From positions 1,569,990 through 1,633,989 of the forward strand of contig NZ_CP017298.1 of the NCBI RefSeq assembly GCF_001746855.1: a DNA stretch of 64,000 nt, read 5' to 3'. Position numbers and translations under genes: made by a program. The DNA comes from Pauljensenia hongkongensis (GTDB taxonomy: Bacteria; Actinomycetota; Actinomycetes; Actinomycetales; Actinomycetaceae). The notes below the pieces were generated by a model. It had not been told where the DNA came from, ran no database searches, and was given only the letters and a program-made list of their open reading frames with translations. Below are positions 4,328-28,599 of this stretch, in pieces. Every line of letters begins with the position of its first letter. The stretch's first letter is position 1.

Positions 4328-4718
4328 TGTGGTTCCTCTCGGTGGGGGAACGCAGCGGGTTCGGCACCGGTGGCATCGTGGTGCTCCGGCGCCTGGTCGG
4401 CCGCGATTCGTCGTTGAACGTGACTGTTGGAAGGTAGCACGTGTTACCAGGTCATGACAATAGAATATTCAGACTTTGGCGGTGGACGTCCTCCCATCCG
4501 TCGTGGACGCATTCTCCGTTGGGATTCCAACGGTTCGCGCCTTCGCCGATCGGCGCCGGAACGATAGTTCCCGAACATACCGACTCGAACAGCATCGTTA
4601 ACGCTACCAAAGTATGGCGCAGATCATACCGCAAGTCCAGCGGGGCCGGTCGGCAACGGGACTCGACGGCAGTGGGACCCAGCGGCAGCGGGACTCTACG
4701 GCAGCGGGGCCGGGGCGG
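4328..4718. other. intergenic: promoter region of the fucoside operon
   Basis: No gene seen in these 391 bp. The right part holds short imperfect GC-rich repeats of a GGCAGCGGGACTC type (about 4650-4720). The middle (4460-4620) is relatively AT-rich. The left part holds the operator and promoter described separately. Confidence 0.6.
4433..4460 (-). promoter_or_regulatory. candidate promoter with LacI-type operator
   Basis: Imperfect palindrome GGTAGCACGTGTTACC at 4433-4448 (one mismatched pair, central CG), the form LacI-family operators take. Reading the minus strand, TTGTCA (4460-4455) can act as -35, followed after about 18 bases by TACCTT as a weak -10, which puts the palindrome between and over them. 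The LacI-family gene at 5737-6789 is the obvious candidate binder. That link is inference. Confidence 0.45.
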
Positions 4719-10769: not shown

Positions 10770-10798
10770 AACTTCTAATTTTGTCTAAATTAGAAGTT
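10770..10798. promoter_or_regulatory. AT-rich operator before the Fic gene
   Basis: Perfect inverted repeat with 12-bp arms: AACTTCTAATTT at 10770-10781 and AAATTAGAAGTT at 10787-10798, spacer TGTCT. It is strikingly AT-rich against the local background and ends 13 bases before the ribosome-binding site of the Fic gene. The Fic protein carries a C-terminal DNA-binding domain, so autorepression is likely (inference). Confidence 0.65.
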
Positions 10799-10820
10799 GC
10801 AAGATGTTCAGGAGGCCCCG

Positions 10821-12925: not shown

Positions 12926-13594
12926 ATGACGCCGACGATGCTGCCCGCCTACTCCTCCGCGCAAACCGTGGGCGGCCTGGTCAATCCGGGGACCGTTGAG
13001 GCGGCGGGGCTCCTGGCGGGCGGGATGTCTGTGCGCGCGGTCAACGACCGCCTGGTGGCCGACAACCTCACGCGCACTCAGTCCTCCCAGAACCGCAGGC
13101 GCCTGGCCACCACGACGACGCGCCACCTCTCGCACCTCGGTCCGGACGCGCTCGCGCATGTCGCCCAGGCGCGGCCCGGTTTCGAGTTGCTGCTGTGGTT
13201 GGCCATCGTCAGCGAGGCGCGCCTGTTCGCCGACTGCGCGCGCGACGCGGTGTGGGAGGCGCTGGTGCTGGCGGAGCGGCCGTTCCGCGTAGCGGATTTC
13301 GACGAGTTCTGGCGGCTCAAGGCCCTCACAGAGCCGAGCCTGGCGGCCCTGTCGGCAGCGAACCGTAAAAGGCAGCGCAGCGTGTTCCTGCGTTGTTTGC
13401 GGGAGGCGGGTTTCATCGACGGGGCGGGCGCCCCCCTGCCCCTGCTTGTCCCCCCGTCGGTGGCGAGGCTGGTGAACGGGGCGCCGGAGCCCTGGGGGTG
13501 GCCGCTGCGGGAGGCCTTCCCGGTTCCACAGGCGCAATTCGACGTGTTGGACGGCGAGGCATTGGAGCAGTACAGGATGAGGCGATCAGGATGA
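12926..13594 (+). CDS. brxA: BREX inner-membrane-type protein BrxA (DUF1819)
   Basis: First gene of a BREX type 1 phage-defence operon, 222 aa. The family is a small, all-helical DNA-binding protein; its exact role in defence is unresolved. Recognised by the start of the homologous part (GTVEAAGLLAGGMSVRAVNDRLVADNLT), the DUF1819-like middle (GFELLLWLAIVSEARLFADCARDAVWE) and, above all, by its place before brxB and brxC. The purine-rich GAGGAG abuts the ATG at 12926; ATG at 12938 (12-base spacing) is an alternative start. It overlaps brxB by 4 bp (ATGA). Confidence 0.8.
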   Translation: MTPTMLPAYSSAQTVGGLVNPGTVEAAGLLAGGMSVRAVNDRLVADNLTRTQSSQNRRRLATTTTRHLSHLGPDALAHVAQARPGFELLLWLAIVSEARLFADCARDAVWEALVLAERPFRVADFDEFWRLKALTEPSLAALSAANRKRQRSVFLRCLREAGFIDGAGAPLPLLVPPSVARLVNGAPEPWGWPLREAFPVPQAQFDVLDGEALEQYRMRRSG

Positions 13595-14241
13595 GGCGGA
13601 CCTACGCGCGGTCATTGGACGACACCTTCGACATCGCCTACCAGGTGATGACCTCCGAGCGCTTCATCGAGATGGAGGGCCTGGGCAACGAGGTCCCGTA
13701 TTTCGTGCTGCGCTACCGGCCCGAGTGGGAGCCGGGCGTGGACAAGGCGGTCCGCCGCCTCACGTCCCGGGTGCGCCAGCACTACCCGCTGACTGTGGTG
13801 GACGTGTTCGACCTGGCCCACCGCCTATGGAGGGAGTCGGGCTACTTGGAGACGATCATCGAGGCCGAGGGGAGCATGCCCGAACAGGATTTCCGCGACG
13901 GCCTGAAGGGTTTGATCGACCCGGAGGACCTCCTGGCACCGGCCATCGACCGCGAGATCGCGCGCGACGCGGATGCGCGCGCCGTTCTGGTGACGGGGGT
14001 CCACCACCTGTTCCCGCTCGTGAGGGCGCACAGGCTGCTCAACTGCCTGCAGCCCTTGGCCTCGCGCAGGCCGTTGGTGCTGGCTTTCCCCGGCAGTTAC
14101 AACCAGTCGCCGGAGCGGGCGTCGTCGCTGGTGCTCTTCGACCGGGTGGGCGAGGACAACTATTACCGCGCTTTCGACCTTCTGGATCAGCGTTATGCTC
14201 TTGATGGCGCTGGCGGCGCGACCGAGAGGACCGGGGAGTAG
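13591..14241 (+). CDS. brxB: BREX protein BrxB (DUF1788)
   Basis: 216 aa, DUF1788 family. Seen: MEGLGNEVPYFVLRYRPEWE near the N-terminus and the conserved C-terminal segment RPLVLAFPGSYNQSPERASSLVLFDRVGEDNYYRAF. BrxB is required for BREX defence and methylation in characterised systems; its biochemistry is not settled. ATG at 13591 overlaps the brxA stop (ATGA); longer upstream frames lie inside brxA and are rejected. brxC starts 3 bases after its stop. Confidence 0.88.
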   Translation: MRRTYARSLDDTFDIAYQVMTSERFIEMEGLGNEVPYFVLRYRPEWEPGVDKAVRRLTSRVRQHYPLTVVDVFDLAHRLWRESGYLETIIEAEGSMPEQDFRDGLKGLIDPEDLLAPAIDREIARDADARAVLVTGVHHLFPLVRAHRLLNCLQPLASRRPLVLAFPGSYNQSPERASSLVLFDRVGEDNYYRAFDLLDQRYALDGAGGATERTGE

Positions 14242-14244
14242 CCA

Positions 14245-17200
14245 ATGGACATGACGGGCATTTACGCCAAGGACATCAACCGCACGATCGACGGGGTGAT
14301 CAAGGCGGACGAGTCCGCCCACATCCGCTCCGAGGTCGACGAGTACGTGATGACCTCGGAGATCCGCGCGGGCCTGGACCGGATCCTGGACGAGTGGAAC
14401 GCCCCCCGGCCCCAGTCGAACGGCGTGTGGATCTCGGGGTTCTTCGGCTCGGGCAAGTCCCATATGCTGAAAATGATGTCGTACCTGCTGGGCGATGTCC
14501 GCGGCTCGGGGGAGATGACGCGCCAGCAGGTCGCGGAGGTTTTCACGCAGAAGGCCCGCGGCCATGAGATGCTGATCGCCGGGATCGGGCGCAGCCAGCA
14601 GATCCCGGCGCTGTCGATGCTGTTCAACATCGACGCGAAGGACGACAAGGCGACGTCGCGCCCCGAGGCGATGATCGAGGTCTTCTACCGCGCGTTCTTC
14701 GAGGCACGGGGCCTTTACACGGCGGATCTGGGCGTGGGGGCCCTCGAGCGGGACTTGGTGGACCGGGGCCTGTTCAACCAGTTCAAGGAGTGCTTCCGCG
14801 CGGTCGCGGGCGGGGAGTGGGAGGATCGCCGCGCGGGAACCGTGTTCGCCGAGGCGCCGACGGCGAGGGCGCTGGCCGGGGTCGGCATCGAGGTGGACAA
14901 GCCCATCGCGTCCTACCGGGCGTCGTTGAACCGTTCGGCGGAGGCCTTCGCCGACGAGGTCGCCCACTGGCTGGATTCCCGGGAGCCGGGCGCGCGGATC
15001 GGTTTCTTCATCGACGAGGTCGGCCAGTTCATCGGTCGCAACACCCACCTGATGCTGAACCTGCAGACCATCACCGAGCAGTTGTTCACGAAGTGCTCGG
15101 GACGGGCGTGGGTGTTCGTCACCTCGCAGGAGAAGCTCGATGACGTCATCGGCGGCCTCGGGGAGCAGCAGGGGAACGATTTCTCGAAGATCCAGGGGCG
15201 TTTCACCACGCAGATCAACTTGTCGACTCAGGAGGTCGAGCAGGTGATCGCGCGGCGCCTTCTGGCCAAGAGCGATGCGGGGCGCGCCGTGCTGGAGGGG
15301 CAGTGGTCGCGCTCCGGCGCGGGTTTCGCCTCGATGTTCACGTTCCCGGCGTGGCAGAAGGCGTATTCGAACTACGCGGACGAGGAGGCGTTCATCGCGA
15401 AGTACCCGTTCGTGGACTACCAGTTCGACATGTTCTCGCAGACGATGATCGGCATGTCCGAGTCGGGGCTGTTCACGGGTCGGCACTCGTCGGTGGGGGC
15501 GCGCTCACTGCTGGGGGTGTGCCAGCAGATCGCGCAGGACCTGCAGGAGCGCCCGATCGGGACCATCACGTCCTTCGACCAGTTCTACGACGGCATCGCC
15601 GCGATGCTGAAGTCGGATGTGAAGGAGAACCTGCACCGCGCGCAGGCGAACTCGCTGACCTCCGACCCCTTCACCATTTCCGTTCTGAAGGCCCTGCTGC
15701 TGGCTCGCTACGTGAAGGACTTCCCGTGCGCGCCGTCGAACCTGGTGGTGCTGCTGCGCCGCGACCTGGGGCAGGACGCGACCGCCCTGGAGGCCCGCGT
15801 CAAGCGGTCGTTGGACGCCCTGGTCGGCCAGTACTTCGTGCAGAAGCTCCCTGAGGGCACGTACACGTACATGACTGACGAGGAGAAGGAGGTCAAGCAG
15901 CAGATCGGCCGGATGTCCGTGTCGGAGGGCGAGGTGACGGGCCACCTGATGCGGTCGGTGCGCGCGGTCCTGGGCAATGCGGCCGCCTCGTACCGGCACC
16001 CGGACACGGACCTGGACCTGCGGATCACAACGATCATGGACTGCATGAGGCCCGCTTCCACGGAGTCCCTCGTCCTCAATTGCGTGACCCCGTTGTCGCA
16101 AGTCGACGCGGAGGCGGCGCGCATCCGCTCGACGGGCGGGCAGGACACGCTGACGGTGGTGCTGGCGTTGAGCGATGAGACCGTTGAAGAGGTCTACATG
16201 TACCTGCGGACCGAGAGGTATGTGCGCGGGGCCACTGGCTCCTCGGCGCCGAGCGGGCGCAAGCGGTTGATCCAGACCTACGGCGAGCAGAACAACGAGC
16301 GCGACGAGCGGATCAAGGCCGCGGTGAGGATGTCTTTCAAGGGCGCGCGGTTCTTCACCGACGGCTCCGAGGTGGAGGTCCCGGCCTCGATGCCGCCCGC
16401 CGAAGCGGTGAACAGGGGAATGGGCGTGGTGGTGGGGCGGGTCTACCACCGGATGGGGGACGCCCTGCCTTTGGCGAAGTTGAAGGAGGGCGATGTCGAC
16501 CGGTTCTTGCGCGACGAGGACGAGGGACTGCTGCCCGAGGGGGGCCTGCAGGCGGCGAACCCTTTGGCGGACCAGTTCGCGCAGTGGGTGAAGCAGTCGC
16601 GCGACCTGGAGGGGCGCAGCGTTTTCGTGCAGGACGCCGTGGACCACTTCCGCGCCGCCCCCTTCGGGTGGGGGCAGAACGCGGTGCTCGCGATCGTGGC
16701 GACAGCGATCCGCCGCGGGCTTGTGGACGCCAAACTCAACGAGCGCCCATTGACGCGCACGGAGTTGTCGTCGGGGTTGCGCGTCTCCCAGGAGCGCTCC
16801 CGCATCCTCCTGGAGCCGAAGAGGCAGGTGGACCAGCGGGCGTTGGCGCGTTTCCGCGCTTTCGCGAAGGAGTTCGTCCTGTCCGACGGGCGCTTGGAAG
16901 ACGACAACGCGCGGGCCGTCGCCGTTGACAACGCTGTGCAGGGGTGGCGCGCGGTCCTGGACCGGGCGCGTCGTACGCCGTTCGACTTCGGTGGAGAGAT
17001 CGACGAGGCGGAGGCCACGTTGGAGGCGGTCGGCGCCGGGCCGCTGGGCGCGGAGGCGTACTTGGCGCCCGGTGTTCAGGCGGTCTTCGACGACGTGGTG
17101 GAGATCCGCTCCGATTTCCTGGAGCCGCTCCAGGAGTTCCTCACGCGCCACATGCCCGCCGTCGAGGACGCCGTGCGCGCGGCCGACTCCTTGGCCGCCT

Positions 17201-17775
17201 ACGGGGACGGCGTGGGCGAGGACGGGCGGCGCGCCATTGAGGAACTGCGGGCCCTGGTCAGCGACGAGCACCTGTACAACCGCACGGACGAGGTGGCTCC
17301 TTTGCGGGAGCGGGTGGACCGGGCGCGCCGTGTTTTCGTCGAGGAGCGGCGCTCGGAGGCGCTGCGCGCGTTCGAGGGGGTGCGCGCTGAGGTCACCGCG
17401 TCCGACGAGTTCGGGCAGGCGGACCCGACTGCCCGCGAGGCGGCGCTGAGCCGGATCGACGCCGAGTGTGCCTCGATCAGGGGAATGACCGACCCGGGGG
17501 CGATCGTGATCGCCGCGCAGAAGGTGGATGCGCTGTCCGCGGAGTTGTTCGCCCGGCTGATCGCGTCGCACGAGCGGGTCGACGAGGCACCCGGCCACTC
17601 CGATGAGGCGCCCGGCGGGCGCGCGGCACCACCCCAGGTCGTCCAGCTCTCCGCACTCACCCGCGACCTGTGCCGCACGACGATACGCACTCCCGACGAC
17701 GTGGACGCCTACGTCGAGGAACTGCGCTCCGCTTTGCACAGGGCTGTTTCGAACGGCAACATCATCCGACGCTGA
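14245..17775 (+). CDS. brxC: BREX ATPase BrxC
   Basis: Large P-loop ATPase of the BREX complex, 1176 aa, close to the usual ~1200. Walker A GFFGSGKS at residues 65-72 in the context GVWISGFFGSGKSHMLKMM; Walker B-like IGFFIDEVGQFIG near residue 252; long helical C-terminal half. BrxC is thought to power the DNA-bound BREX assembly. It directly follows brxB and is followed by pglX after 8 bases. Codon usage is uniformly GC-rich, like the chromosomal background. Confidence 0.92.
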   Translation: MDMTGIYAKDINRTIDGVIKADESAHIRSEVDEYVMTSEIRAGLDRILDEWNAPRPQSNGVWISGFFGSGKSHMLKMMSYLLGDVRGSGEMTRQQVAEVFTQKARGHEMLIAGIGRSQQIPALSMLFNIDAKDDKATSRPEAMIEVFYRAFFEARGLYTADLGVGALERDLVDRGLFNQFKECFRAVAGGEWEDRRAGTVFAEAPTARALAGVGIEVDKPIASYRASLNRSAEAFADEVAHWLDSREPGARIGFFIDEVGQFIGRNTHLMLNLQTITEQLFTKCSGRAWVFVTSQEKLDDVIGGLGEQQGNDFSKIQGRFTTQINLSTQEVEQVIARRLLAKSDAGRAVLEGQWSRSGAGFASMFTFPAWQKAYSNYADEEAFIAKYPFVDYQFDMFSQTMIGMSESGLFTGRHSSVGARSLLGVCQQIAQDLQERPIGTITSFDQFYDGIAAMLKSDVKENLHRAQANSLTSDPFTISVLKALLLARYVKDFPCAPSNLVVLLRRDLGQDATALEARVKRSLDALVGQYFVQKLPEGTYTYMTDEEKEVKQQIGRMSVSEGEVTGHLMRSVRAVLGNAAASYRHPDTDLDLRITTIMDCMRPASTESLVLNCVTPLSQVDAEAARIRSTGGQDTLTVVLALSDETVEEVYMYLRTERYVRGATGSSAPSGRKRLIQTYGEQNNERDERIKAAVRMSFKGARFFTDGSEVEVPASMPPAEAVNRGMGVVVGRVYHRMGDALPLAKLKEGDVDRFLRDEDEGLLPEGGLQAANPLADQFAQWVKQSRDLEGRSVFVQDAVDHFRAAPFGWGQNAVLAIVATAIRRGLVDAKLNERPLTRTELSSGLRVSQERSRILLEPKRQVDQRALARFRAFAKEFVLSDGRLEDDNARAVAVDNAVQGWRAVLDRARRTPFDFGGEIDEAEATLEAVGAGPLGAEAYLAPGVQAVFDDVVEIRSDFLEPLQEFLTRHMPAVEDAVRAADSLAAYGDGVGEDGRRAIEELRALVSDEHLYNRTDEVAPLRERVDRARRVFVEERRSEALRAFEGVRAEVTASDEFGQADPTAREAALSRIDAECASIRGMTDPGAIVIAAQKVDALSAELFARLIASHERVDEAPGHSDEAPGGRAAPPQVVQLSALTRDLCRTTIRTPDDVDAYVEELRSALHRAVSNGNIIRR

Positions 17776-17783
17776 GGAACGAG

Positions 17784-20700
17784 ATGGACATCAATATCAA
17801 CGCGCTCGAGTCGTTGGCGACGAAGTCGCGCGCGCGCCTGATCGGCCAGGCTACGGGGGCGATCCAGCGGCTGCTGGACGATCCTTTGACCGAGGCAGAG
17901 GACCGCAGGCGGATCGAGCGGGCGGTGGCCCACCACGGCGGCGTTGAGGGCGCGGCGCGGGAGGCGGCGTACTCGTGGTTCAACCGTTTGACGGCGCTGC
18001 GGTACATGGACGCCGTCGGCGTGTCGGGGACGCACATGGTGGTGACGCCCACCGGTGCCTCATCCGAGCCCGAGTGCCTGTCGCAGGCGCGGGTCGGCGC
18101 TTTCGATCCCCGCGTCGACCGCGCTCCCGCCAGTCCGGACGCGGACGGCCGCCCGGGCGTGGCGCAGCGGGTCGGGCGCCTGCTCTTCGAGAACCGGGAC
18201 GTGGAGGCGTACGTGGTGCTGCTGAGCGCCTACTTCGACCTGTGGCACCCGCTGATACCGGATATGTTCCCCGCCGGGGACCATTGGACGAACCTGGTGC
18301 CGCCCAGCGACCTGCTGTCGGCATCGAGTGTGCGGGCGGACATCGTGGAGGGCATCGCCGTGGGCGAGTCGGGCGGCCCCGGCGTGGAGGTGATCGGCTG
18401 GCTCTACCAGTTCTACATCGCGGAGCGCAAGCAGCAGATCAACGACGCGAAGGTGAAGATCACCAGCAAGGAGCTGGCCCCGGTCACCCAGTTGTTCACG
18501 CCGCACTGGATCGTGCGGTACTTGGTGGAGAACACGGTGGGGGCGCAGTGGCTGCGCGCCCACCCGGGCTCGCCCCTGCGCGACCGCTTCGACTACCTGG
18601 TGGCCCCAGTGCCGGGCCAGGAGGACCAGGGAATGGGGATCGGGGACCCGAAGGACTTCCGCGTCATCGATCCAGCGTGCGGATCCGGGCACATGCTCAC
18701 CTACGCTTTCGACGTCCTGTGGCAGATGTACGTGGAGGCGGGGTACCCGAAGCGGCGGATCGCAGCGGCCATTCTGGACAACAACCTGTTCGGCGCGGAG
18801 ATCGACGCCCGGGCTGTCCAGTTGGCGTCCTTCGCCCTCATGATGAAGGCCGTGGAGCACGATCCGGGTTTCCTGGAGCGCAAACTGCGCGAGCAGGACC
18901 GCAAGGCCGCGGGACCGGGTGCTGGGCGGCCGCGCATCACCCACGTCCACTCGGTCGTCTTGGAGGACCTCTCCCCCACCGAGATCGCACAGGCAGTGCG
19001 CGGTGCCTTCGGGAGCGAGGATAGCGAGCGCGCGTCGGTGGGGCTGGAGGTCAACCGCGTCATCGAGGACCTGCGCAATGCCGACACCTTCGGCTCCCTC
19101 ATCCGTGTGCCCGCTGGGACCGCCGAGATCTTCGAGGCCATCGCCCGCAGTATCGAGGAGGGTCGGCGCGACGTGCAACTCGGTTCCGCCGATACGCAGC
19201 AGTGGCGCGAGGCAGCGGGGATCTGCCGGGTCCTGGAGGACTCCCGCTACACGACGATGGTGGCGAACCCGCCGTACCTTGTCTCAAAGAAATTCGGCGA
19301 CGGACTAAAGGAGTATGCCCGGCAGTCCTACCCCGATTCACGGCAAGACCTTGCGACGATGTTCATGCAACATGCCCTCACCTTCACAAGAAAACGTGCC
19401 TCGATCGGCACCCTCACACTCAATTCCTGGATGCTGACCAGCTCATTCGAACGATTCCGCATTCGTTTGCTCAAGAACGCTTCCATTCAGAGTATCGCAA
19501 TGCTTGGGCGCGGCCTTGCTGGAATCCAATTAGACTTCTGCGCGACAGTGTTCTGGAATGCCTGCCCACGTTCAGATCGTACTATCAGGTTTATTACTGC
19601 TAGCGAACCAGCCACATCACCAAGCAATCCAATTCGCATTCAGCGCCTACAGGAAGCGGCACAGAATCCAAAGTCGTCTGACAATATTGAAGTCACATAT
19701 TCTCGCATCACCAGAATGCCTCGATCCGCTTTTCTGCATTCGATCTCAGATCAGATTCTCGAGGGATTTAAAACTCCACTGGCGGAGGTTGCGCGGCCCA
19801 GGCAGGGACTCGCTACCGCCGATAACGAGCGTTTCCTCCGCCTGTGGTTCGAGGTCAGCTCGTCCCGCTCGTACCTGACGGCGACCAGCAGGGAGGACGC
19901 CGACGCCTCCGGCGCGCGGTGGTTCCCCCACAACAAGGGAGGATCCTTCCGTAAGTGGTGGGGCAACCAGGATTACCTCGTCAATTGGGAAGATGACGGA
20001 CGAGAAATTCAAGAATATCGCGATCCATATACCGGAAAACAACGCTCACGTCCCCAAAACATAGACTTCTACTTCAAACCATGCGTCTCGTGGTCTAACG
20101 TTTCAAGTGGCACCCCATCCTTCCGTCTCTACAACGAGAATTTTATATTCAGTCATGTGGGACAGGCATTATTTTCTGATACAGAACACCACCCGGCCAT
20201 AATGTCCTTTGCGAACTCCACCGTTGTGACCAAAATTCTAGAAGCTATTGCTCCCGGCACCCACTTCGAAGTCGGACAGATCAAGACTCTCCCGTGGATC
20301 GAACCTGAGAGTTTCGACCCGACACCCATTGAACGCTTGATTGAGATCTTCCGGGACGACTGGGACGCCCGCGAGACCTCGTGGGACTTCCAGCGCCCGC
20401 CCTATCTGGTGGGCGATTCATCCCTGCTGGAGGAGCTTTTCGCCGCCTGGTACGAGCGCAGCGTAAGCACCGCCCGGGAGGCCCAGCGCCTGGAGAGCGA
20501 GAACAACCGCTTCTGGGCCGGTGTGTACGGCCTGGAGGACGAGGTCGAGATCGACGTGCCCCTGTCCCGCGTGTCACTGACCTACAATCCACGATTCCCG
20601 CCCGCCCCCTCGAAAGGCGCGGAGCGCAGCGAGGAGGAGTACCGGTGGCTGCACTACCAGCGCAGCGCGACGGAACTGGTCTCCTGGTTGATCGGCGTCA

Positions 20701-21521
20701 TCATGGGCCGCTACAGCCTCGACGCTCCCGGCTTAATCCTGGCGGACCAGGGGTCGACGCTCGACGATTTCCAGGCGCGGGTGCCCACCGCCTCGTTCAT
20801 GCCCGACGCCGATGGGATCGTCCCGATCACCGACTCGCTCTTCCACGACAATGCGGACTTGCGCCTCACCGATGCGCTGAGCGCGCTACTGGGTGCGGAC
20901 AGCCTCGGGCAGAACCTCGACTTCCTGGCGCGCTGCCTGGCCGTGAAGAAACCAACATCGAATGGCGCGGACTTCCAACCCCCCAGACCGGTGGTGGACT
21001 CCCGGGCAGCACTGCTCAAGTACATGAAGAGCGGTTTCCTCAAGGACCACGAGCAGGCCTACTCCAACCGCCCGGTCTATTGGATGTTCTCGTCGCCTAA
21101 AGGCAGTTTCAAGGCCCTCATGTACCTGCACCGCTACACTCCCGACACCGTGGGGCACGTGCTCACCGAGTACGCCTCCGAAGTCGTCGCGAAGCTGGCC
21201 GACCAGATCGAAGTCATCAACCGGCGCCTGCCGGACATGGGCGGCAGCGACCGGACCCGCGCACAGGGGAAACGGGAGAAGCTGAGGGCCCAGTTGCACG
21301 ACGTGCAGGGGTACATCGACTCCACCCTTTACCCGCTCTCGCAGCGCCGCATCGTCCTGGACCTGGACGACGGCGTGCGCGTGAACCGCCTCAAACTGGC
21401 CTATGGGATGCGCGAGGACCTGGACGAGCTGGCCTCCCCAGCACTCCAGATGCCTGACGATTTGAAATGGATGACCGACCAGAAGCGCAAGGGCAACATC
21501 TGGTGGTCCACGCAGAATTAG
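17784..21521 (+). CDS. pglX: BREX adenine-specific DNA methyltransferase PglX
   Basis: Type 1 BREX N6-adenine methyltransferase, 1245 aa. It marks host DNA and is the specificity subunit. SAM-binding motif DPACGSGHML near residue 294 and catalytic NPPY near residue 496 (MVANPPYLVSKKFG). The start at 17784 follows GAGGAACG; the open frame upstream lies in brxC. Bases about 19270-19780 and 19985-20285 are clearly AT-richer and use other codons than the rest, matching the region after NPPY where the target-recognition part is expected. No stop or frameshift is seen, so the methylase appears intact. Confidence 0.93.
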   Translation: MDININALESLATKSRARLIGQATGAIQRLLDDPLTEAEDRRRIERAVAHHGGVEGAAREAAYSWFNRLTALRYMDAVGVSGTHMVVTPTGASSEPECLSQARVGAFDPRVDRAPASPDADGRPGVAQRVGRLLFENRDVEAYVVLLSAYFDLWHPLIPDMFPAGDHWTNLVPPSDLLSASSVRADIVEGIAVGESGGPGVEVIGWLYQFYIAERKQQINDAKVKITSKELAPVTQLFTPHWIVRYLVENTVGAQWLRAHPGSPLRDRFDYLVAPVPGQEDQGMGIGDPKDFRVIDPACGSGHMLTYAFDVLWQMYVEAGYPKRRIAAAILDNNLFGAEIDARAVQLASFALMMKAVEHDPGFLERKLREQDRKAAGPGAGRPRITHVHSVVLEDLSPTEIAQAVRGAFGSEDSERASVGLEVNRVIEDLRNADTFGSLIRVPAGTAEIFEAIARSIEEGRRDVQLGSADTQQWREAAGICRVLEDSRYTTMVANPPYLVSKKFGDGLKEYARQSYPDSRQDLATMFMQHALTFTRKRASIGTLTLNSWMLTSSFERFRIRLLKNASIQSIAMLGRGLAGIQLDFCATVFWNACPRSDRTIRFITASEPATSPSNPIRIQRLQEAAQNPKSSDNIEVTYSRITRMPRSAFLHSISDQILEGFKTPLAEVARPRQGLATADNERFLRLWFEVSSSRSYLTATSREDADASGARWFPHNKGGSFRKWWGNQDYLVNWEDDGREIQEYRDPYTGKQRSRPQNIDFYFKPCVSWSNVSSGTPSFRLYNENFIFSHVGQALFSDTEHHPAIMSFANSTVVTKILEAIAPGTHFEVGQIKTLPWIEPESFDPTPIERLIEIFRDDWDARETSWDFQRPPYLVGDSSLLEELFAAWYERSVSTAREAQRLESENNRFWAGVYGLEDEVEIDVPLSRVSLTYNPRFPPAPSKGAERSEEEYRWLHYQRSATELVSWLIGVIMGRYSLDAPGLILADQGSTLDDFQARVPTASFMPDADGIVPITDSLFHDNADLRLTDALSALLGADSLGQNLDFLARCLAVKKPTSNGADFQPPRPVVDSRAALLKYMKSGFLKDHEQAYSNRPVYWMFSSPKGSFKALMYLHRYTPDTVGHVLTEYASEVVAKLADQIEVINRRLPDMGGSDRTRAQGKREKLRAQLHDVQGYIDSTLYPLSQRRIVLDLDDGVRVNRLKLAYGMREDLDELASPALQMPDDLKWMTDQKRKGNIWWSTQN

Positions 21522-21600: not shown

Positions 21601-22761
21601 ATGCCCATGAAACTCACGCACGTGGAGCTGCAGAACTGGCGCAACTTCGCCCACATCGAGTTCGACTTGAACACACGCCTCTTCGTCGTCGGCCCCAACG
21701 CCTCCGGCAAGTCCAACCTGCTCGACGCCCTGCGCTTCATCTCCGACGTGGCCAACGCCGGACTGTACGAGGCATCAATAAAGAAGCGAGATAGCTTCCG
21801 ATCGATCGTTCACGCTAATGCCGAAGAATGCACCCTCGCATTCAAGTTCGATAGCAGCGCTCTGCAAGGCTATGAGCTTTCACTGGAACAAGTTCACGAA
21901 CCTGTAATTTACGACGGCGAGGAAGTCGGAGAAGAATTAGCCGACATGCCCTACGTCAAAGCAGAAAACATCTTTACCGCTGATGGAAACGTTCATCCTT
22001 CCCCATACGTGTCCCACATATTGGGTCACGAGGTGGTGTTCGCACATGAAACTACCCTACAAAGCGCAACTCTGAGCAACAGCTTCAAGGGCATCCGCGA
22101 CTACTTCGTCGGCATCCACTACATCCACCCGAATCCGAAGAAAATGCTCGAGCGCGGGCGCTACGACGAGCACGCCACCGGTTTCACCCAGCGCGTCGCC
22201 TCGCGCCCCGACGTTGTTCTGCAACCCGCAATCGCGCGCATCCGGCCGATCCTGGCTTCGATAGTTCCCGAAATACCCCGTTTGAGCTATGTGCGCATCG
22301 GCGCGAACGACGACATCATCTTCTACAGCGACGACCCCCAGAAACCGGGCGCCTTCACCCACATGCGATTCTCCGAAGGAACTCTGCGTATCCTCGGAAT
22401 CCTCTTCGAACTGGCAACGCTTCCAAAAGACACGTCGCTGGTCCTCATCGAGGAGCCCGAGCTGTTCATGCAGCCCTCCGTCGTCCGTTCGCTTCCAGAC
22501 TTCTTCGCTGCGGTCGCAGCGGACAGGAACGTGCAGATGATCATCACCACCCACTCCCCCGACCTTATCGACAACGAACTCATCCGTCCCGACCAGGTTC
22601 TCATGCTTGAGCCCACCGACACGGGAACCAAAGGGACGCTTCTCTCAGAGTCGCAAGACCCCCGGGTACGCAGCTTCGTCGAAACGGCTTTTCCCCTATC
22701 CGAGGCTGTGGACTCCGTGAACCGGCGACGAATCCCACTTGGAATATGGGACCACCGATGA
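21601..22761 (+). CDS. AAA ATPase, AriA/RecF-like, embedded in BREX
   Basis: 386 aa ABC/SMC-type ATPase (AAA_15/AAA_21 class). Walker A GPNASGKS at residues 31-38, signature-like RFSEGTLRILGILFELA, Walker B TSLVLIEEPELFMQP near 280-292, and the H-loop ITTHSPDLID. The segment at 21770-22075 between Walker A and the signature is AT-richer than the rest. It overlaps the next gene by 4 bp, so the two should act together. An ATPase plus TOPRIM pair between pglX and pglZ is the arrangement reported for PARIS (AriA/AriB) within enterobacterial BREX loci, so a PARIS-like abortive-infection or anti-restriction-sensing module is inferred, not proven. Confidence 0.82.
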   Translation: MPMKLTHVELQNWRNFAHIEFDLNTRLFVVGPNASGKSNLLDALRFISDVANAGLYEASIKKRDSFRSIVHANAEECTLAFKFDSSALQGYELSLEQVHEPVIYDGEEVGEELADMPYVKAENIFTADGNVHPSPYVSHILGHEVVFAHETTLQSATLSNSFKGIRDYFVGIHYIHPNPKKMLERGRYDEHATGFTQRVASRPDVVLQPAIARIRPILASIVPEIPRLSYVRIGANDDIIFYSDDPQKPGAFTHMRFSEGTLRILGILFELATLPKDTSLVLIEEPELFMQPSVVRSLPDFFAAVAADRNVQMIITTHSPDLIDNELIRPDQVLMLEPTDTGTKGTLLSESQDPRVRSFVETAFPLSEAVDSVNRRRIPLGIWDHR

Positions 22762-23402
22762 CTGTCAGCAAGCACCCGCAGGTTTTCGTCGAGGGCAACA
22801 CTGACGAACCCATTGTGAGAGCCCTGATGACGGCAACGGGATGGGTCTCCGAGGAGTACAGGATCTTCTGCGCGAAGGGGAGCGGAAACATAATCCGCTC
22901 AATCACCAAGCACGCAGAAGCGGCCAGGCAGATCCCTCGCATCCTGTTCCTCGACAGCGATAACAAATGCCCAGTCGATATGCGGAAAGACCTGGAAAAG
23001 GAACTCACGCATATCCCTGCCGATTTCGTCCTCCGTATCGTCTGCACGTGCATCGAATCCTGGGTACTCGCGGACTGCGAAGGATTGGCCAGCTTTTGCG
23101 GCGTGGGCATTGCAGCGATCCCCGCATCGCAGAAGCTCGCACCGATACACAACCACAAGAACGAGCTTCTCAAGGTTCTTAGAAAATCAAAGTCTCCAAA
23201 AGGCCGGGAGATGACCCAGGGCAGCGGGAACGACTTGCAGTTCTCTGACGATTACACACGTCACCTCGCCGACCTCATGACCGACTACTGGGACGCCGAG
23301 CGCGCCGCTCAGAACAACGACAGCCTCCGGCGGGCCATCGCACGGCTCAAGGACCTGCGCGCCCGCCTCTGCACCGATGCCGTGCCGGAGGTGCGACAAT
23401 AA
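22758..23402 (+). CDS. TOPRIM-domain protein (DUF4276/AriB-like) paired with the ATPase
   Basis: 214 aa. Read as a TOPRIM nuclease-like fold: Glu12 in QVFVEGNTDEPIV and the acidic DxD pair Asp66/Asp68 in RILFLDSDNK, followed by CIESWVLADCEGL, a segment typical of DUF4276-type proteins. The start is the ATG at 22758 overlapping the ATPase stop (ATGA); an ATG at 22746 is possible. In ATPase/TOPRIM pairs (OLD, Gabija, PARIS) this subunit is the nuclease or effector. Substrate unknown. It is shorter than the ~300-residue AriB proteins, so homology to AriB itself is uncertain. Confidence 0.72.
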   Translation: MTVSKHPQVFVEGNTDEPIVRALMTATGWVSEEYRIFCAKGSGNIIRSITKHAEAARQIPRILFLDSDNKCPVDMRKDLEKELTHIPADFVLRIVCTCIESWVLADCEGLASFCGVGIAAIPASQKLAPIHNHKNELLKVLRKSKSPKGREMTQGSGNDLQFSDDYTRHLADLMTDYWDAERAAQNNDSLRRAIARLKDLRARLCTDAVPEVRQ

Positions 23403-23406
23403 GGCC

Positions 23407-25941
23407 ATGAGTGGAATCGACGCCTCCGCATTGGCCGACGGCCTGCGCGAGCTGCTGACGCGCGCGCGCTTGGTCACCTGGCTTGACCAGGGCCGCGAGT
23501 ACACCGACCAGGTCGACGAGGTCGCCGCCCTGGTGCCGGACGCACAGCTCATCACCGTCGACCACAACGAGTTCGCCACCAAACTCCGCGTCCTCCGCGA
23601 CCAACCGAAAGACGCGTTCATCCTCTACCGTCCCGGCGACCTTCCGCCCCTGGACACGGACCTGTTGGCCGACATCCGCTGCGGGTACCCCGCGTTTTCC
23701 GCCGACGCCTCGTCGATGCTGGCCCGCGAACTGGACCTGGACGACGACCTGACGCCCATTCTTCGCGAATACGACGGTTTCTTCACCCGTGAGCGCATCC
23801 GCCGCATCAAAGACCGCAAAATCCAGATCAACGACAAGAACAAGCTGCTGGCCGTCATGAGTGCCGTCCTGCTGGGCATCCACGACCACTCCTTCTCCTC
23901 GATCTTCGTCGAACTGGCCAACTCCGACGCGTGCGAACAGGCTAAGATCGGCAAACTCAAATGGGGGCTCGCCGACTTCTTCTGGGAAGGGGCGCGCTCC
24001 ATCTGGAAGTACCAGGGGGACCCAGAGCTCAACAACCTCATGACATGGCTCTTCATCGAGCAGCGCCGGGGCTGGGACCCCGCCCTCGCCTCGGCCCAAC
24101 GCGACTTCGCCACCTGGATGGGCGGCGTCAAGAACCAGGACGCCGTCAAAGTCTGGGCGACGCGCATCAGCGAGGACCTTGGCCTGGCCGAAGAACTCCC
24201 CAGCCTCGACACCGCCGACCTGGAGCGGGACCTGGTCACCCCGGGCGTCGACGACCAGCTGATCCGCCGCGCGGTCACCTCCCTGATCGACGGGCGCTCC
24301 AATGCGGCCGACGTGCGCACGCAGAGGAGCAGGCGCGCCTCCTCGCTCTGGAAGGAGGAATCCGCCAGCGCCTGGGAGGCCGCCGAGGCCGGCGGCCGGT
24401 TCCTCCACCTGGTCCACACCCACCGGGACGCCGCGTTCCGCACCGCGGGTGAGGGATTCGCCCTCTACACCGACGCTGCGAACGGCCTGTGGCAGGTGGA
24501 CCAGGCGTACCGCCACTATGTCCGCGCCTCGCGCGCCGCCGGGGACCCCGACGTGTTCGGAGAGCTCGACGCGGCCGTCGAGACCATCTACCTCCACGAC
24601 TTCCTGCGGCCCCTGTCCGCCTGGTGGGACGCGGCGGTCCGCGCGCTCCCCACATGGCGCATTCCCGCCCACGCCTCGTCGAACCCGGGCCGACAATCCG
24701 ACTTCTACGACCTCATGGTCCGCAACGCGAAGAAAACCGCAGTCATCGTCTCCGACGCGCTCAGGTACGAGGCGGGGGCCGAACTGGCCGAAAGACTCAT
24801 CGCCCGCGGGGGCGCCACCGTCGAGATCACCCCGTGGTACACGCTGCTGCCGTCCGTGACCGCGCTGGGCATGGCCGCACTGCTGCCCAACCGCAGTCTC
24901 AGCACCGGTGTGCGGGCCGACGCGTTGGAGGTACGGGCCGACGGCGAGCCCACGGGTGGCCTGGCCGCGCGCGACGCGGTGCTGCGGGCAGCCAGCGGCG
25001 ACCGGATCACCGCGCACTCGTACCAGACGATCGCGGGAATGCTCAGGGACGACTTGCGCGCCCTGGGCAAGGGCATGGCAGCGATCTACGTCTACCACGA
25101 CCACATCGACGCCGTCGGCGACCACGCGGCCTCCGAGAGCGGAACGCCCGAGGCGGTTGAGAGGGCACTCACGGATCTCGCTGCGCTGGTCACGCGCCTG
25201 CGCTCCGCGGACTTCCACCGGATCCTCATCACCGCCGACCATGGCTTCCTCTACCAGGCCCGGCCCCTGCCCGACGACACGACCGCCAAGCAGGGGACCG
25301 CGCCCCGCGCCGAGAAGATCCTCCTCAAGAAACGCCGCTACCAGTTGGGCGACGCCATGGAGAGCAGCGACGACTTCGCCGTGTTCCCCGCCGCCGATGT
25401 CGGGCTCGCCTCCGGGCCGGATGTCGCACTGCCCTTCGGGATGCGCAGGAGCCGCATTCAGGGCCGGGGCGACCAGTTCGTCCACGGCGGCGCCAGCCTG
25501 CAGGAGATCAGTGTTCCCGTCATCGAGGTCAACACAACCGCCGGGCTCAAAGCCCACGATGTCGAGGTCGAGCTCTCCTACTCCACATCGCGGATCAGCA
25601 TGACCCGCATCACCCCGAAAGTCATCCAGAAGGACCCCATCGCCGAGCGCATCCGCCCCATTGAGATCACGGTCGGCATCATCGACGCCGACACCGGAAA
25701 GCCCCTGTCGAACGTGGAGCGCCTCACCCTGGACTCGGTCGAGGCCACGCGCCTTGACCGCGCCAGAACCGTTGAACTCATCCTGTTGGACGGGATCCTG
25801 CAGGAGTACGCGGGAAAGACGGTACTGCTGGCCGCACACAAGGTCGTCAACGGAATGCGCGCATCGGACGCCCCCGTCGCGTCACTGGAGTTGGAAGTCC
25901 GGGACACCGGTTTCGGCGGACTAGGAGGATTCACCCTATGA
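23407..25941 (+). CDS. pglZ: BREX phosphatase-superfamily protein PglZ
   Basis: 844 aa, alkaline-phosphatase-superfamily BREX protein. Metal-site segments visible: AVIVSDALRYEAGAEL near residue 446 and ILITADHGFLYQA near residue 605; IYVYHDHIDAVGDHA lies between them. PglZ is needed for BREX methylation and defence; nuclease activity is reported for some homologues. The start ATG at 23407 lies 4 bases past the TOPRIM gene stop. It overlaps brxL by 4 bp (ATGA). Confidence 0.93.
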   Translation: MSGIDASALADGLRELLTRARLVTWLDQGREYTDQVDEVAALVPDAQLITVDHNEFATKLRVLRDQPKDAFILYRPGDLPPLDTDLLADIRCGYPAFSADASSMLARELDLDDDLTPILREYDGFFTRERIRRIKDRKIQINDKNKLLAVMSAVLLGIHDHSFSSIFVELANSDACEQAKIGKLKWGLADFFWEGARSIWKYQGDPELNNLMTWLFIEQRRGWDPALASAQRDFATWMGGVKNQDAVKVWATRISEDLGLAEELPSLDTADLERDLVTPGVDDQLIRRAVTSLIDGRSNAADVRTQRSRRASSLWKEESASAWEAAEAGGRFLHLVHTHRDAAFRTAGEGFALYTDAANGLWQVDQAYRHYVRASRAAGDPDVFGELDAAVETIYLHDFLRPLSAWWDAAVRALPTWRIPAHASSNPGRQSDFYDLMVRNAKKTAVIVSDALRYEAGAELAERLIARGGATVEITPWYTLLPSVTALGMAALLPNRSLSTGVRADALEVRADGEPTGGLAARDAVLRAASGDRITAHSYQTIAGMLRDDLRALGKGMAAIYVYHDHIDAVGDHAASESGTPEAVERALTDLAALVTRLRSADFHRILITADHGFLYQARPLPDDTTAKQGTAPRAEKILLKKRRYQLGDAMESSDDFAVFPAADVGLASGPDVALPFGMRRSRIQGRGDQFVHGGASLQEISVPVIEVNTTAGLKAHDVEVELSYSTSRISMTRITPKVIQKDPIAERIRPIEITVGIIDADTGKPLSNVERLTLDSVEATRLDRARTVELILLDGILQEYAGKTVLLAAHKVVNGMRASDAPVASLELEVRDTGFGGLGGFTL

Positions 25942-28034
25942 CACGCGAACTCACGCCCGTCGAGGCGAAGGCCTCCAACGCCTTCGCCGGGTACATCGTC
26001 CGCAAGGACCTGGTGCACCAGGTCAAGGGCAACGCCGTCGTCCCCTCGTACGTCCTGGAGTTCCTGCTCGCGCAGTACTGCGCGACGACGAACGAGGAGG
26101 AGATCCGCTCCGGCGTCGAATCCGTGCGTAAGATCCTGGCCGCCCACTACGTGAACCGCGGCGAATCAGAACTCATCAAATCCCGGATACGCGAGCAGGG
26201 CGGCTACCGGATCATCGACAAGGTCTCCGTTTCCCTGGACGAGGCGAACGACCGCTACGTGGCGTCCTTCGAGAACCTCGGGGTGGCCAACGCCCTGGTC
26301 TCGGACCAGACTGTCCGCGACAACGACCGCCTGCTCACCGGTGGTGTGTGGTGCATGGCCGACATGTCGTACTTCCCCGCCCTAGAGGGCGCCAAGACCG
26401 CCCCGTGGAACGTCTCGCGCCTGCAGGCGATCCAGCTGCCCCGGTTCTCCTTCGAGGAGTACGCCGACGCCCGGGGCCAGTTCACGACGCAGGAGTGGAT
26501 CGACCTGCTGGTCGCATCCGTGGGCCTGGACCCCTCGAAGCTCTCCGAGCGCGCCAAAATGCTCCAAGTCCTGCGCCTGGTCCCCTACGTGGAGCGCAAC
26601 TACAACCTGGTGGAGCTCGGCCCCAAGGGCACCGGGAAGTCGCACATCTACTCCGAGTTCTCACCCCACGGGATCCTGGTGTCCGGCGGCGAGGTCACCC
26701 TGGCGAAACTCTTCGTCAACAACGCGACCCACCGCATCGGCCTCGTCGGATTCTGGGACGTCGTCGCCTTCGACGAGTTCGCCGGACGCAAGCGCGTCGA
26801 GCAGAACCTGGTCGACACGATGAAGAACTACCTGGCGAACAAGTCCTTCTCGAGGGGCGACAGCCCCACGACAGCGCAGGCGTCCATGGTTTTCGTCGGC
26901 AACACCATGCGCACTGTGCCCGCCATGCTGGCCACCTCCGACTTGTTCGAGGCGCTGCCCGACGCCTACCACGACACGGCGTACATGGACCGCATCCACT
27001 ACTACCTGCCCGGATGGGAGGTCGACGTGATCCGGCCCGAGCTGTTCACCTCCGGCTACGGCTTCATCGTCGACTACCTGGCCGAGGCGCTCCGTCACCT
27101 GCGCACCCTCGACTTCTCGGGGGACCTCTCGGGCCACTTCGAGTTGGACTCCCACATGTCGACCCGCGACCGCGACGCCGTCCGCAAGACCTTCTCCGGC
27201 CTCGTCAAACTCATCCACCCCGACCGGGACGGCACGCCCGCAGAGTTGGAGTCGCTGCTGCGCCTGGCCATGGAGGGGCGCAAACGCGTGAAGGACCAGA
27301 TCATCCGCCTCGATGAGACCATGCGGGAGTCCGGCTCGCACTTCCTCTACACGGTGTCGGCATCCGGTGGCGAGCGCGCTATCCGCACGCAGGAGGAGAT
27401 CGACTACCCCGAGTACTTCACCGCGGACGACGACCGCCCCGCAGGCGAGCCGCCCACCACAGGAGGGACTCATCCCCAACCCCCGGTGGGCGGGGCGGCG
27501 CAGGAGACTGCTCCCAGACCAGCCGACCGCCTCGACACCCTGCGTTCTCGCGCAATCCCCAAACGCGAGGAGGTCGAAGCACGGATAGGGGTGTCCCTGC
27601 CCAAGATGCTGCTCCCCTACCTGGTGGACGCCCAGAAGATCACCATCGTCGACCCGTACTTGCGGAAGCGCCACCAGATCGCGAACATCCACGACATCCT
27701 GATCCACATGGTCCAGGCCGTCGGCCTGGCGGCACCCCCTCGCGTCCACCTCGCCACCGGTCGGGCAGAGCCCGACAGAGCCACTGAGCAGATGCAACTG
27801 CTCAACGACCTCTGCCAGACGTGGGGCCATTTCGGCGTCGAGATCGACTACGAGTTCGTTGCCGACATCCACGACCGCGTCATCAAAACGGACACAGGCT
27901 GGGTCATCGACCTGGGTCGCGGCCTGGACGTGTACGAGCGGTTCCAAGCGCTGTCGAGGTTCGATCCGCGCTTCGACCTCATGGAGCTGCGCAGGACCAA
28001 GGGCTTCACCTTCAACGCGCAACGAACGGAGTAG
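25938..28034 (+). CDS. brxL: BREX protein BrxL with MIT_C-like C-terminal domain
   Basis: 698 aa, last BREX core gene. N-terminal BrxL part with an AAA+ core: Walker A GPKGTGKS at 228-235 and Walker B-like GFWDVVAFDEFAG near 270. A Pro-rich linker (about 500-545) leads to a C-terminal domain (about 555-698). There I do not see a Lon Ser/Lys protease site. Instead IVDPYLRKRHQIANIHDIL, IHDRVIKTDTGWVIDLGRGLDVYERF and the spacing between them match the C-terminal domain of eukaryotic MITD1 (MIT_C, phospholipase-D-like fold). BrxL is a DNA-binding AAA+ motor in characterised systems; this C-terminus could bring an additional targeting or nucleic-acid activity. Confidence 0.88.
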   Translation: MTRELTPVEAKASNAFAGYIVRKDLVHQVKGNAVVPSYVLEFLLAQYCATTNEEEIRSGVESVRKILAAHYVNRGESELIKSRIREQGGYRIIDKVSVSLDEANDRYVASFENLGVANALVSDQTVRDNDRLLTGGVWCMADMSYFPALEGAKTAPWNVSRLQAIQLPRFSFEEYADARGQFTTQEWIDLLVASVGLDPSKLSERAKMLQVLRLVPYVERNYNLVELGPKGTGKSHIYSEFSPHGILVSGGEVTLAKLFVNNATHRIGLVGFWDVVAFDEFAGRKRVEQNLVDTMKNYLANKSFSRGDSPTTAQASMVFVGNTMRTVPAMLATSDLFEALPDAYHDTAYMDRIHYYLPGWEVDVIRPELFTSGYGFIVDYLAEALRHLRTLDFSGDLSGHFELDSHMSTRDRDAVRKTFSGLVKLIHPDRDGTPAELESLLRLAMEGRKRVKDQIIRLDETMRESGSHFLYTVSASGGERAIRTQEEIDYPEYFTADDDRPAGEPPTTGGTHPQPPVGGAAQETAPRPADRLDTLRSRAIPKREEVEARIGVSLPKMLLPYLVDAQKITIVDPYLRKRHQIANIHDILIHMVQAVGLAAPPRVHLATGRAEPDRATEQMQLLNDLCQTWGHFGVEIDYEFVADIHDRVIKTDTGWVIDLGRGLDVYERFQALSRFDPRFDLMELRRTKGFTFNAQRTE

Positions 28035-28116: not shown

Positions 28117-28599
28117 ATGAACCAGCAGAATATCAGCGGTATTGGCGACGGAAACACCATTAGTCAACACCAGCACATTGGCGATCAAACACTGTACTCA
28201 CTCAGTCTTGACGGTCTTGCTGAGGAGGACGCCCTCGCCCGAAGGGTGACGGTAACTGAGCGCTACAGCCGCATGAGATCAGCATTGGTTGCGTTCGTTT
28301 TCGCCCTTCTTGGATTCGGATGCCTTGCGTACTTCTACTGGAATGACGGATGTCCGGGACTCAGCAAACTCGTTGAGCTTGCACAAGAGAGCCTACTCAC
28401 AGTCATCTTTGAGTACACATTGCCACTAATAGTGGGAGCCACGGCTAGCGCGTTCTTCGGGAAGAAGATAACAAAGCCCACGGACATTGAGATCAGGAGC
28501 AAAGGCAGGCGAAAGCACATCTACAGCATCGCGCGCGAAAAAGGGTACTCAAAGAGAGAGTGGCGCCGTGCGCAACGACGCACAAGGGATCGGGCTTGA
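28117..28599 (+). CDS. small two-helix membrane protein at the 3-prime end of the BREX island
   Basis: 160 aa, not recognised. The first ~25 residues are Gly/Asn/Gln/His-rich with no charge pattern of a signal peptide (NISGIGDGNTISQHQHIGDQ). Then come an amphipathic stretch, a membrane segment at about 55-75 (ALVAFVFALLGFGCLAYFYW), a second at about 92-112 (LLTVIFEYTLPLIVGATASAFF), and a strongly basic tail. GGAGG stands 9 bases before the ATG. Its base composition is lower in GC than the BREX genes. It begins 82 bases after brxL on the same strand. A defence-linked membrane effector is possible but speculative. Confidence 0.7.
   Translation: MNQQNISGIGDGNTISQHQHIGDQTLYSLSLDGLAEEDALARRVTVTERYSRMRSALVAFVFALLGFGCLAYFYWNDGCPGLSKLVELAQESLLTVIFEYTLPLIVGATASAFFGKKITKPTDIEIRSKGRRKHIYSIAREKGYSKREWRRAQRRTRDRA

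What the first reader, a model, noticed from the sequence alone, without database searches (positions are those of the whole stretch)
27600..28034. BrxL ends in a MITD1-type (MIT_C) domain in place of a Lon protease
Residues ~555-698 carry IVDPYLRKRHQ, IHDR-V-I and GWVIDLGRGLDVY in the order and spacing of the MIT_C domain of human MITD1, a phospholipase-D-like fold that binds membranes. I see no Ser/Lys protease dyad. A BREX motor with a PLD-like or membrane-binding tail would act differently from the studied Lon-like BrxL.
Basis: partly seen in the sequence, partly recalled or inferred. Interest (0 to 1): 0.7.

Follow-up and report, generated by a model that had tools for sequence, protein, structure and literature searches.

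The report
Defence motor with human-like PLD tail
A bacterial anti-phage motor protein (BrxL of a BREX system) ends in the same phospholipase-D-like domain that a human cell-division protein, MITD1, carries; the swap of this tail is already known in bacteria, but the closeness of some tails to the human domain seems not to have been noted.

Summary
BrxL (25938-28034, +, 698 aa) of a type 1 BREX operon ends in a MIT_C domain (PF16565, residues 551-686, E=6e-27). An AlphaFold2 model of the tail (pLDDT 93) matches MITD1 over 152 of 159 residues at 1.7 A (Z 21.9); restriction and lipid-acting PLD-fold enzymes follow at Z 8-10. No Lon domain is found; a Lon-type BrxL control scores 3e-25.

The swap itself is in print: a January 2026 paper counts 1030 of 2913 type 1 BrxL with a C-terminal "HKD-endoDNase". 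Its main text names neither MIT_C nor MITD1.

What I add: (1) that tail and MITD1's are one family; all 18 columns conserved in at least 96% of 157 bacterial rows (132 distinct) are identical in MITD1. (2) One BrxL lineage carries tails 43-51% identical to MITD1 and groups with it at 100/99 support. The root is unsettled. (3) The BrxL tail is a swap site: Lon-like, MIT_C, Schlafen AlbA_2 and protein kinase tails occur.

Nuclease or membrane binder is undecided; I favour a phosphodiester-acting effector (0.5).

The parts
12926..13594 (+). BrxA
   Evidence: Pfam BrxA 1.4e-19; PADLOC BrxA
13393..14241 (+). BrxB (true start probably downstream of 13393, as the ORF overlaps brxA)
   Evidence: Pfam BrxB 2.8e-26 at residues 136-263
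14245..17775 (+). BrxC ATPase
   Evidence: NF033441 1.2e-243
17670..21521 (+). PglX methyltransferase, BREX-1 type
   Evidence: NF033452 1107.8 bits
21601..22761 (+). AAA ATPase (PADLOC HEC-01A), set between pglX and pglZ
   Evidence: PDLC04180 4.7e-111
22746..23402 (+). HEC-01B partner, weakly DUF4276
   Evidence: PDLC04194 7.7e-68; DUF4276 below its cut-off
23377..25941 (+). PglZ type A
   Evidence: TIGR02687 1.3e-126
25938..28034 (+). BrxL, 698 aa, with MIT_C tail
   Evidence: PADLOC BrxL model PDLC02508 (698 positions) matches residues 9-696, 2.3e-265
26619..26777 (+). Walker A (228-235) and Walker B (D279-E280) of the AAA+ domain
   Evidence: P229, G231-S235 and D279-E280 invariant in 26 aligned BrxL; positions
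27423..27557 (+). probable flexible linker, residues 496-540
   Evidence: pLDDT under 50 in the full-length model
27558..28031 (+). folded PLD-like tail, residues 541-698
   Evidence: domain model of residues 540-698, pLDDT 93.2, pTM 0.85; MITD1 match Z 21.9
27588..27995 (+). MIT_C domain (PF16565), residues 551-686
   Evidence: 6.1e-27
27870..27893 (+). H645-x-R647-x4-D652 motif (HKD-like, K replaced by R)
   Evidence: H 155 of 157, R 157 of 157 bacterial tail rows, 132 of them distinct

Best explanation
This is a BREX type 1 BrxL in which the Lon-like, ring-joining tail is replaced by a PLD-fold MIT_C domain behind a linker of about 45 residues. Shown here: the domain's identity and predicted fold, an ATPase core with Walker motifs kept, the BREX operon, and a strictly conserved pocket-type set of residues (one His, four Arg, Asp, Asn, Gln, Thr, Trp). 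Inferred: the AAA+ ring loads on unmodified phage DNA as in the studied BrxL, and the tail domains, brought together by the ring or by two rings meeting tail to tail, form a composite PLD-type site that binds a phosphodiester or phosphate group, most likely cutting or processing the phage DNA.
For: Domain and fold. Operon. PglZ found in 61 of 62 genome loci with at least 5.5 kb upstream of such a tail, 71 of all 80. Residue conservation: 18 columns at 96% or more over 157 bacterial rows (132 distinct; 36-38 of 38 representatives under 70% identity); 7 of them (G551, N583, T607, H645, R647, G654, R685) lie outside the search patterns that fetched the loci (patterns). The best structural neighbours after MITD1 include the restriction enzymes SauUSI and NgoAVII and the nuclease NucT (Z 9.8, 9.6, 9.1). 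Ring loading on DNA and tail-to-tail joining in a relative: PMC10164562, passages. The authors of PMC12839542 also propose a DNase.
Against: The HKD lysine is Arg in all 157 rows, and the Ser/Asn of the usual GSxN stretch (motif recalled) are replaced by RGL(D). The same residues are all kept in MITD1, which is described as a membrane binder. Lipid-acting PLD enzymes score as high as the nucleases (phosphatidylserine synthase 9.6, phospholipase D 9.2), so the fold does not choose between DNA and lipid. In the Lon-type BrxL the tails sit far from the DNA. No residue-level superposition with a PLD nuclease could be made with these tools. One MIT_C relative is fused to a dynamin GTPase, which fits membranes.
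Confidence: 0.5

Rival explanations
1. Membrane anchor: like MITD1, the tail binds acidic lipids and holds the BrxL ring at the inner membrane, where phage DNA enters or a partner sits.
For: One family with MITD1; all 18 conserved columns shared with MITD1; MITD1's PLD-like domain binds membranes and this is needed for abscission (PMC6015221, passage), lipid listed as PI(4,5)P2 (PMC9776629 table); one bacterial MIT_C is fused to Dynamin_N (L144).
Against: Bacteria generally lack PI(4,5)P2 (general knowledge). The MIT domain that targets MITD1 to ESCRT-III is absent: no MIT hit in BrxL. The dynamin fusion is a single case with a divergent tail. Residues that bind the membrane in MITD1 could not be checked; the 2012 paper is not held.
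Confidence: 0.25
2. Non-catalytic assembly or docking module: the tail only joins two BrxL rings, or docks PglZ, as the Lon-like tail does, with the conserved pocket binding a structural ligand.
For: The Lon-like tail it replaces is not a protease and joins rings tail to tail; very different folds occupy the same place (Lon-like, MIT_C, AlbA_2, kinase).
Against: Such strict conservation of His and four Arg across 157 tail rows and a human protein is more than a mere dimer contact needs. The low-confidence linker argues against rigid packing on the ring, though the full-length model is only moderate (pLDDT 76.5).
Confidence: 0.2
3. Divergent Lon-like domain mistaken for MIT_C.
For: Only the family's habitual name.
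Against: No Lon_C at E<=1 against 3.4e-25 for the Lon-type control L012; fold match to MITD1 at Z 21.9.
Confidence: 0.01

Closest known systems
BrxL with C-terminal HKD-endoDNase, BREX type 1 (Rakesh and Krishnan 2026, PMC12839542; they cite Li et al. 2025, Menshen, for an earlier report)
   Same: BrxL core with a C-terminal PLD-fold domain in which the HKD lysine is arginine, in place of the Lon-like domain; 1030 of 2913 (section 19).
   Different: That paper's main text does not name MIT_C or MITD1 (0 occurrences); activity is proposed there, not shown. Its supplements were not seen, and whether this exact protein is among the 1030 was not checked.
Human MITD1 (4a5z, 2ymb), MIT_C domain PF16565
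   Same: Fold, Z 21.9; 18 of 18 conserved columns identical.
   Different: MITD1 has an N-terminal MIT domain (PMC9477494, passages); BrxL has BrxL_N plus AAA+ instead. The window's tail is 26% identical in the structure alignment.
BrxL of Acinetobacter (8emc, 8emh; PMC10164562)
   Same: N domain and AAA+ core, aligned 13-472, E 1e-132.
   Different: Lon-like tail there, PLD-like tail here.

Membership tests
BREX type 1 BrxL | BrxL_N plus BrxL AAA+ domain | tested here: met
   1.1e-47 and 4.2e-122; TIGR02688 556 bits, cut-off 329
BREX type 1 BrxL | Walker A and B intact | tested here: met
   G231-S235 and D279-E280 present and invariant in 26 rows
BREX type 1 BrxL | operon with brxA, brxB, brxC, pglX, pglZ | tested here: met
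Lon-like-tailed BrxL | Lon_C (S16) type tail | tested here: not met
   no Lon_C at E<=1; control L012 3.4e-25, and Lon_C listed at E<=0.1 in all 15 other Lon-type BrxL scanned, over its cut-off in 12 of them; TIGR02653 matched only to residue 473 and under its cut-off
MIT_C (PF16565) | score over the curated cut-off | tested here: met
   94.7 against 25 bits
MIT_C (PF16565) | PLD fold of the MITD1 type | tested here: met
   predicted model: Z 21.9, rmsd 1.7, 152 aligned of 159
MITD1 protein | N-terminal MIT domain | tested here: not met
   no MIT family in the Pfam table at E<=1
MITD1 protein | membrane binding | not testable with these tools
   needs liposome assay
HKD PLD-superfamily nuclease | HxKx4D motif (recalled) | tested here: not met
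   H 155 of 157 rows, but R instead of K in 157 of 157; +7 D in 104 of 113
HKD PLD-superfamily nuclease | nuclease activity, two motifs in one site | not testable with these tools
   one motif per chain; a dimer could not be modelled

The most novel reading that the evidence does not exclude
The PLD-like domain of the human cytokinesis protein MITD1 comes from the tail of a bacterial anti-phage BrxL lineage (or both from one common source close to it), and the pocket they share is a working ligand or phosphodiester site, so MITD1 has an unrecognised activity, and BREX tails and this ESCRT partner can be studied by the same mutants.
Probability: 0.3. Interest if true: 0.8.

Novelty: new member of a known kind. 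Interest (0 to 1): 0.5.

Why it matters
What BrxL acts on is still listed as an open question in a 2025 review (PMC12707154, passages). A tail that swaps between unrelated folds suggests that the AAA+ core is a common loader and the tail the exchangeable part. If the MIT_C tail is a nuclease, MITD1 deserves a test for enzyme activity; if it is a membrane binder, BREX restriction may happen at the membrane. The same two residues (H645, R647 here) test both. A defence-gene origin for an ESCRT-linked human protein would add to the human genes traced to bacterial immunity.

Tried and rejected
Lon-like tail: rejected. Foldseek and VIA lists showed no Lon chain among the rows printed, which is no proof by itself.

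Window tail in phage records: no match at E<=0.01; the full BrxL hits 6 phage records, all over the core only.

Matches to PF16565 under the cut-off: the two printed in full (L157, L158) read, by eye, as ABC-transporter ATPases, and ABC-transporter chains at E 0.1-0.5 are of the same kind; not counted as MIT_C.

Single origin of MIT_C tails on the BrxL core tree: the free tree has three places and 0% of 200 bootstrap trees have one, but the AU test does not reject one origin (p 0.22; p 0.14 without the two divergent rows). So I do not claim several origins for MIT_C. For AlbA_2 tails one clade is rejected (p 2e-68, 4 rows).

Root of the tail tree: with L177 as outgroup (end branch 7.15) a root on MITD1 is not rejected (p 0.165). 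L144 and the window row were left out of that run as long branches; with them in, the MITD1 group still had 100/99.

A conservation count used a shifted alignment and crashed; discarded and redone by MAFFT. The phylum and PglZ counts printed before the crash are used. The 157 rows hold some proteins fetched twice; 132 are distinct.

ORF 28117-28599 after BrxL: no relative in the fetched loci other than the window's own two or in plasmids at E<=0.01, so no link to the tail could be shown.

Papers: Hadders 2012 and the Menshen paper are not held. The paper found for BrxL plus AlbA has 'Alba' only in 'Albany'; the second listed there was not opened.

Full report
What is there. The window holds a BREX type 1 operon on the + strand: BrxA, BrxB, BrxC, PglX, an inserted HEC-01A/HEC-01B pair, PglZ and BrxL. 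BrxL is 698 aa at 25938-28034. Pfam gives BrxL_N, BrxL_ATPase and then MIT_C at residues 551-686 with E=6.1e-27, and no Lon domain. It is the one PF16565 match in the window's genome as held, 70.5% complete.

Is it more than chance? Yes, by four tests. Pfam scores 94.7 bits against a cut-off of 25. The tail alone finds MITD1 in the PDB at 1.6e-12, with unrelated ABC ATPases next at 0.1. A profile of 39 tails finds MITD1 at 8.5e-40, with the next unrelated chain at 0.08. An AlphaFold2 model (39 rows, pLDDT 93.2, pTM 0.85) matches MITD1 with Z 21.9, rmsd 1.7 A, 152 residues; then come SauUSI 9.8, NgoAVII and phosphatidylserine synthase 9.6, phospholipase D 9.2, NucT 9.1. As a control, a Lon-type BrxL (L012) gives Lon_C at 3.4e-25. 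In the full-length model (pLDDT 76.5, 26 rows) residues 496-540 are of very low confidence, which I read as a flexible linker; part of the ATPase core, 239-287, is low too, so this model says little about the core.

Is it known? The domain name is in Pfam. The PADLOC BrxL model PDLC02508 spans core and tail, and some plasmid annotations already read 'MIT C-terminal domain-containing protein'. One 2025 paper lists PF16565 among BREX domains (PMC12715929, passages; the only paper of the held library with that accession). The main prior report is PMC12839542 (outline, passages and section 19 seen): in 1030 of 2913 type 1 BrxL the Lon-like domain is replaced by an 'HKD-endoDNase' with Lys changed to Arg. 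The motif in this window fits that description (H645-D-R647-x4-D652). The paper's main text has no mention of MIT_C or MITD1. In the held library MITD1 and BREX co-occur in one paper, a cancer review that I did not open; MITD1 and 'horizontal gene transfer' in none. Subscription papers, preprints and supplements are not covered.

How common? In 396 genomes of the window's phylum 23 have the BrxL ATPase, with 24 matches. Their tails, by script, are 10 Lon-like, 6 AlbA_2, 5 MIT_C (the window's own included) and 3 unclassified. Pfam agrees: AlbA_2 over its cut-off in 6 of 6; Lon_C over its cut-off in 7 of 10 and listed below it in the other 3; of the unclassified, L026 is a protein kinase, L019 shows nothing after the core, L029 is a fragment and was not scanned. 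MIT_C in the phylum exceeds the cut-off in 5 of 396 genomes, all in a BrxL ORF. In 299 genomes of the phylum of Acidithiobacillus, seed included, 11 exceed the ATPase cut-off: 6 Lon-like (Lon_C over its cut-off in 6 of 6) and 5 MIT_C, one of them the seed. In 296 genomes of the phylum of a Chlorobiaceae genome, seed included, 18 have MIT_C over the cut-off, 19 matches, 16 of them in a BrxL. Of 113 ORFs with the tail in the 80 genome and 33 viral-contig loci, 110 carry the BrxL core in the same frame; the other three are an operon remnant (L051), a piece cut by the contig edge (L128) and a PglZ-tail join (L129).

Conservation. Over 157 bacterial tail rows (132 distinct; a few of them outside BrxL) 18 columns are at least 96% conserved: G551, D572, P573, Y574, R576, Q580, N583, T607, H645, R647, G654, W655, I657, R661, G662, L663, D664, R685. 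MITD1 has the same letter in all 18. Eleven of these lie under the peptide patterns used to fetch loci, so their count is flattered; seven do not. With the strands of the model several of these residues fall at the ends of the central strands, where the PLD-superfamily active site lies (placement recalled; inference). The Lys of HKD is Arg in every row. I therefore call it a conserved, enzyme-like pocket of unproved activity.

The link to MITD1. Tails of one BrxL lineage (IMG/VR loci such as L130, L137, L140; the Thioflavicoccus mobilis plasmid L194; Hymenobacter plasmids L145 and L195; genomes L148 and L161) are 43-51% identical to human MITD1 over about 142 residues. L137 finds MITD1 at 1e-38 over residues 2-143 of 145. 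In the tail tree they form a group with MITD1 at 100/99 that excludes the other BrxL tails (39 rows; 28 rows), 98/99 with an outgroup row added. The four ATPase cores of this lineage in the core tree also form one group (100/100), so core and tail travelled together there. MITD1 then sits inside or beside one BrxL lineage, unless the root lies on its own branch, which one distant outgroup could not exclude (p 0.165). The exact place of MITD1 within the group is weakly supported (80-84 / 31-60). Only one eukaryotic sequence was used. The direction of transfer is therefore not shown. The window's own tail is a long branch near L126 and L124, not part of the MITD1-like group.

The tail as a swap site. 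On the BrxL core tree (36 rows) the tail types are interleaved: 7 changes for 4 labels, the least possible being 3, against 15.5 in shuffles. AlbA_2 tails arose at least twice (AU p 2e-68). The kinase-tailed L026 and the AlbA_2-tailed L027 lie among Lon-tailed BrxL on starred branches. PMC12839542 mentions Schlafen RNases as linked genes beside BREX, in the passages seen, not as BrxL tails, and no other held paper joins the words BrxL and Schlafen. MIT_C also occurs outside BrxL: with Dynamin_N (L144), IF2_N (L146) and Sel1 repeats (L174).

How it probably works. The Acinetobacter BrxL assembles on double-stranded DNA with ATP, and its Lon-like tails join two rings far from the DNA (PMC10164562, passages). 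The window's core keeps Walker A and B. I infer the same loading. A PLD-fold domain with one motif per chain usually needs a partner to complete its site (general knowledge of Nuc and BfiI), and a ring or double ring would supply it. The step from conserved pocket to DNA cutting is inference; the membrane reading and the pure-assembly reading stay open at 0.25 and 0.2. A review passage says that one Salmonella BREX moved into E. coli does not need brxL for restriction (PMC12707154), so the weight of any BrxL tail may depend on the system.

Verdict. Observation confirmed; interpretation partly supported; the swap itself is known. The part worth following is that the BREX 'HKD' tail and the human MITD1 domain are one family with one conserved pocket, very close in one BrxL lineage.

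Noticed in passing
L007, L009, L011, L021, L023, L027: BrxL with a Schlafen AlbA_2 tail in place of the Lon-like domain (Pfam in 6 of 6), at least two origins.
   Followed up: partly
L026:1012-3480 (+): BrxL core fused to a protein kinase domain (Pkinase 1.3e-33), lying among Lon-tailed BrxL in the core tree.
   Followed up: partly
L144:3622-6465 (+), plasmid pTs485 of Candidatus Thiodictyon syntrophicum: Dynamin_N GTPase with a C-terminal MIT_C domain, 947 aa.
   Followed up: partly
L146:5413-6462 (+) and L174:790-3414 (+): MIT_C fused to IF2_N, and MIT_C followed by Sel1 repeats.
   Followed up: no
L051:7131-8474 (+), Stutzerimonas stutzeri KOS6: A BrxA gene is followed directly by an ORF with a MIT_C tail and no BrxL core or PglZ in the 16 kb: apparently a BREX operon that lost its middle.
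   Followed up: partly
L129:2294-4231 (+): A PglZ-like front part (by eye) runs in frame into a BrxL tail; a natural deletion or an assembly join.
   Followed up: no
L145 (Hymenobacter sp. BRD67 plasmid), 4391-6432: BrxL is annotated as several short pieces, so probably broken in this record.
   Followed up: no
window 28117-28599 (+): 160 aa ORF right after BrxL with two hydrophobic stretches (by eye), no Pfam match over a cut-off, and no relative in the other fetched loci or in plasmids.
   Followed up: partly
window 21601-23402 (+): HEC-01A/HEC-01B pair set inside the BREX operon between pglX and pglZ.
   Followed up: no
window 10797-12185 (+): Fic-domain protein (SoFic-like) upstream of the BREX operon.
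   Followed up: no
L111-L143: BrxL with MIT_C tails on contigs that IMG/VR classes as viral; 23 of 33 loci carry at least one other BREX gene nearby. Prophage, phage or misclassed host DNA was not told apart.
   Followed up: no
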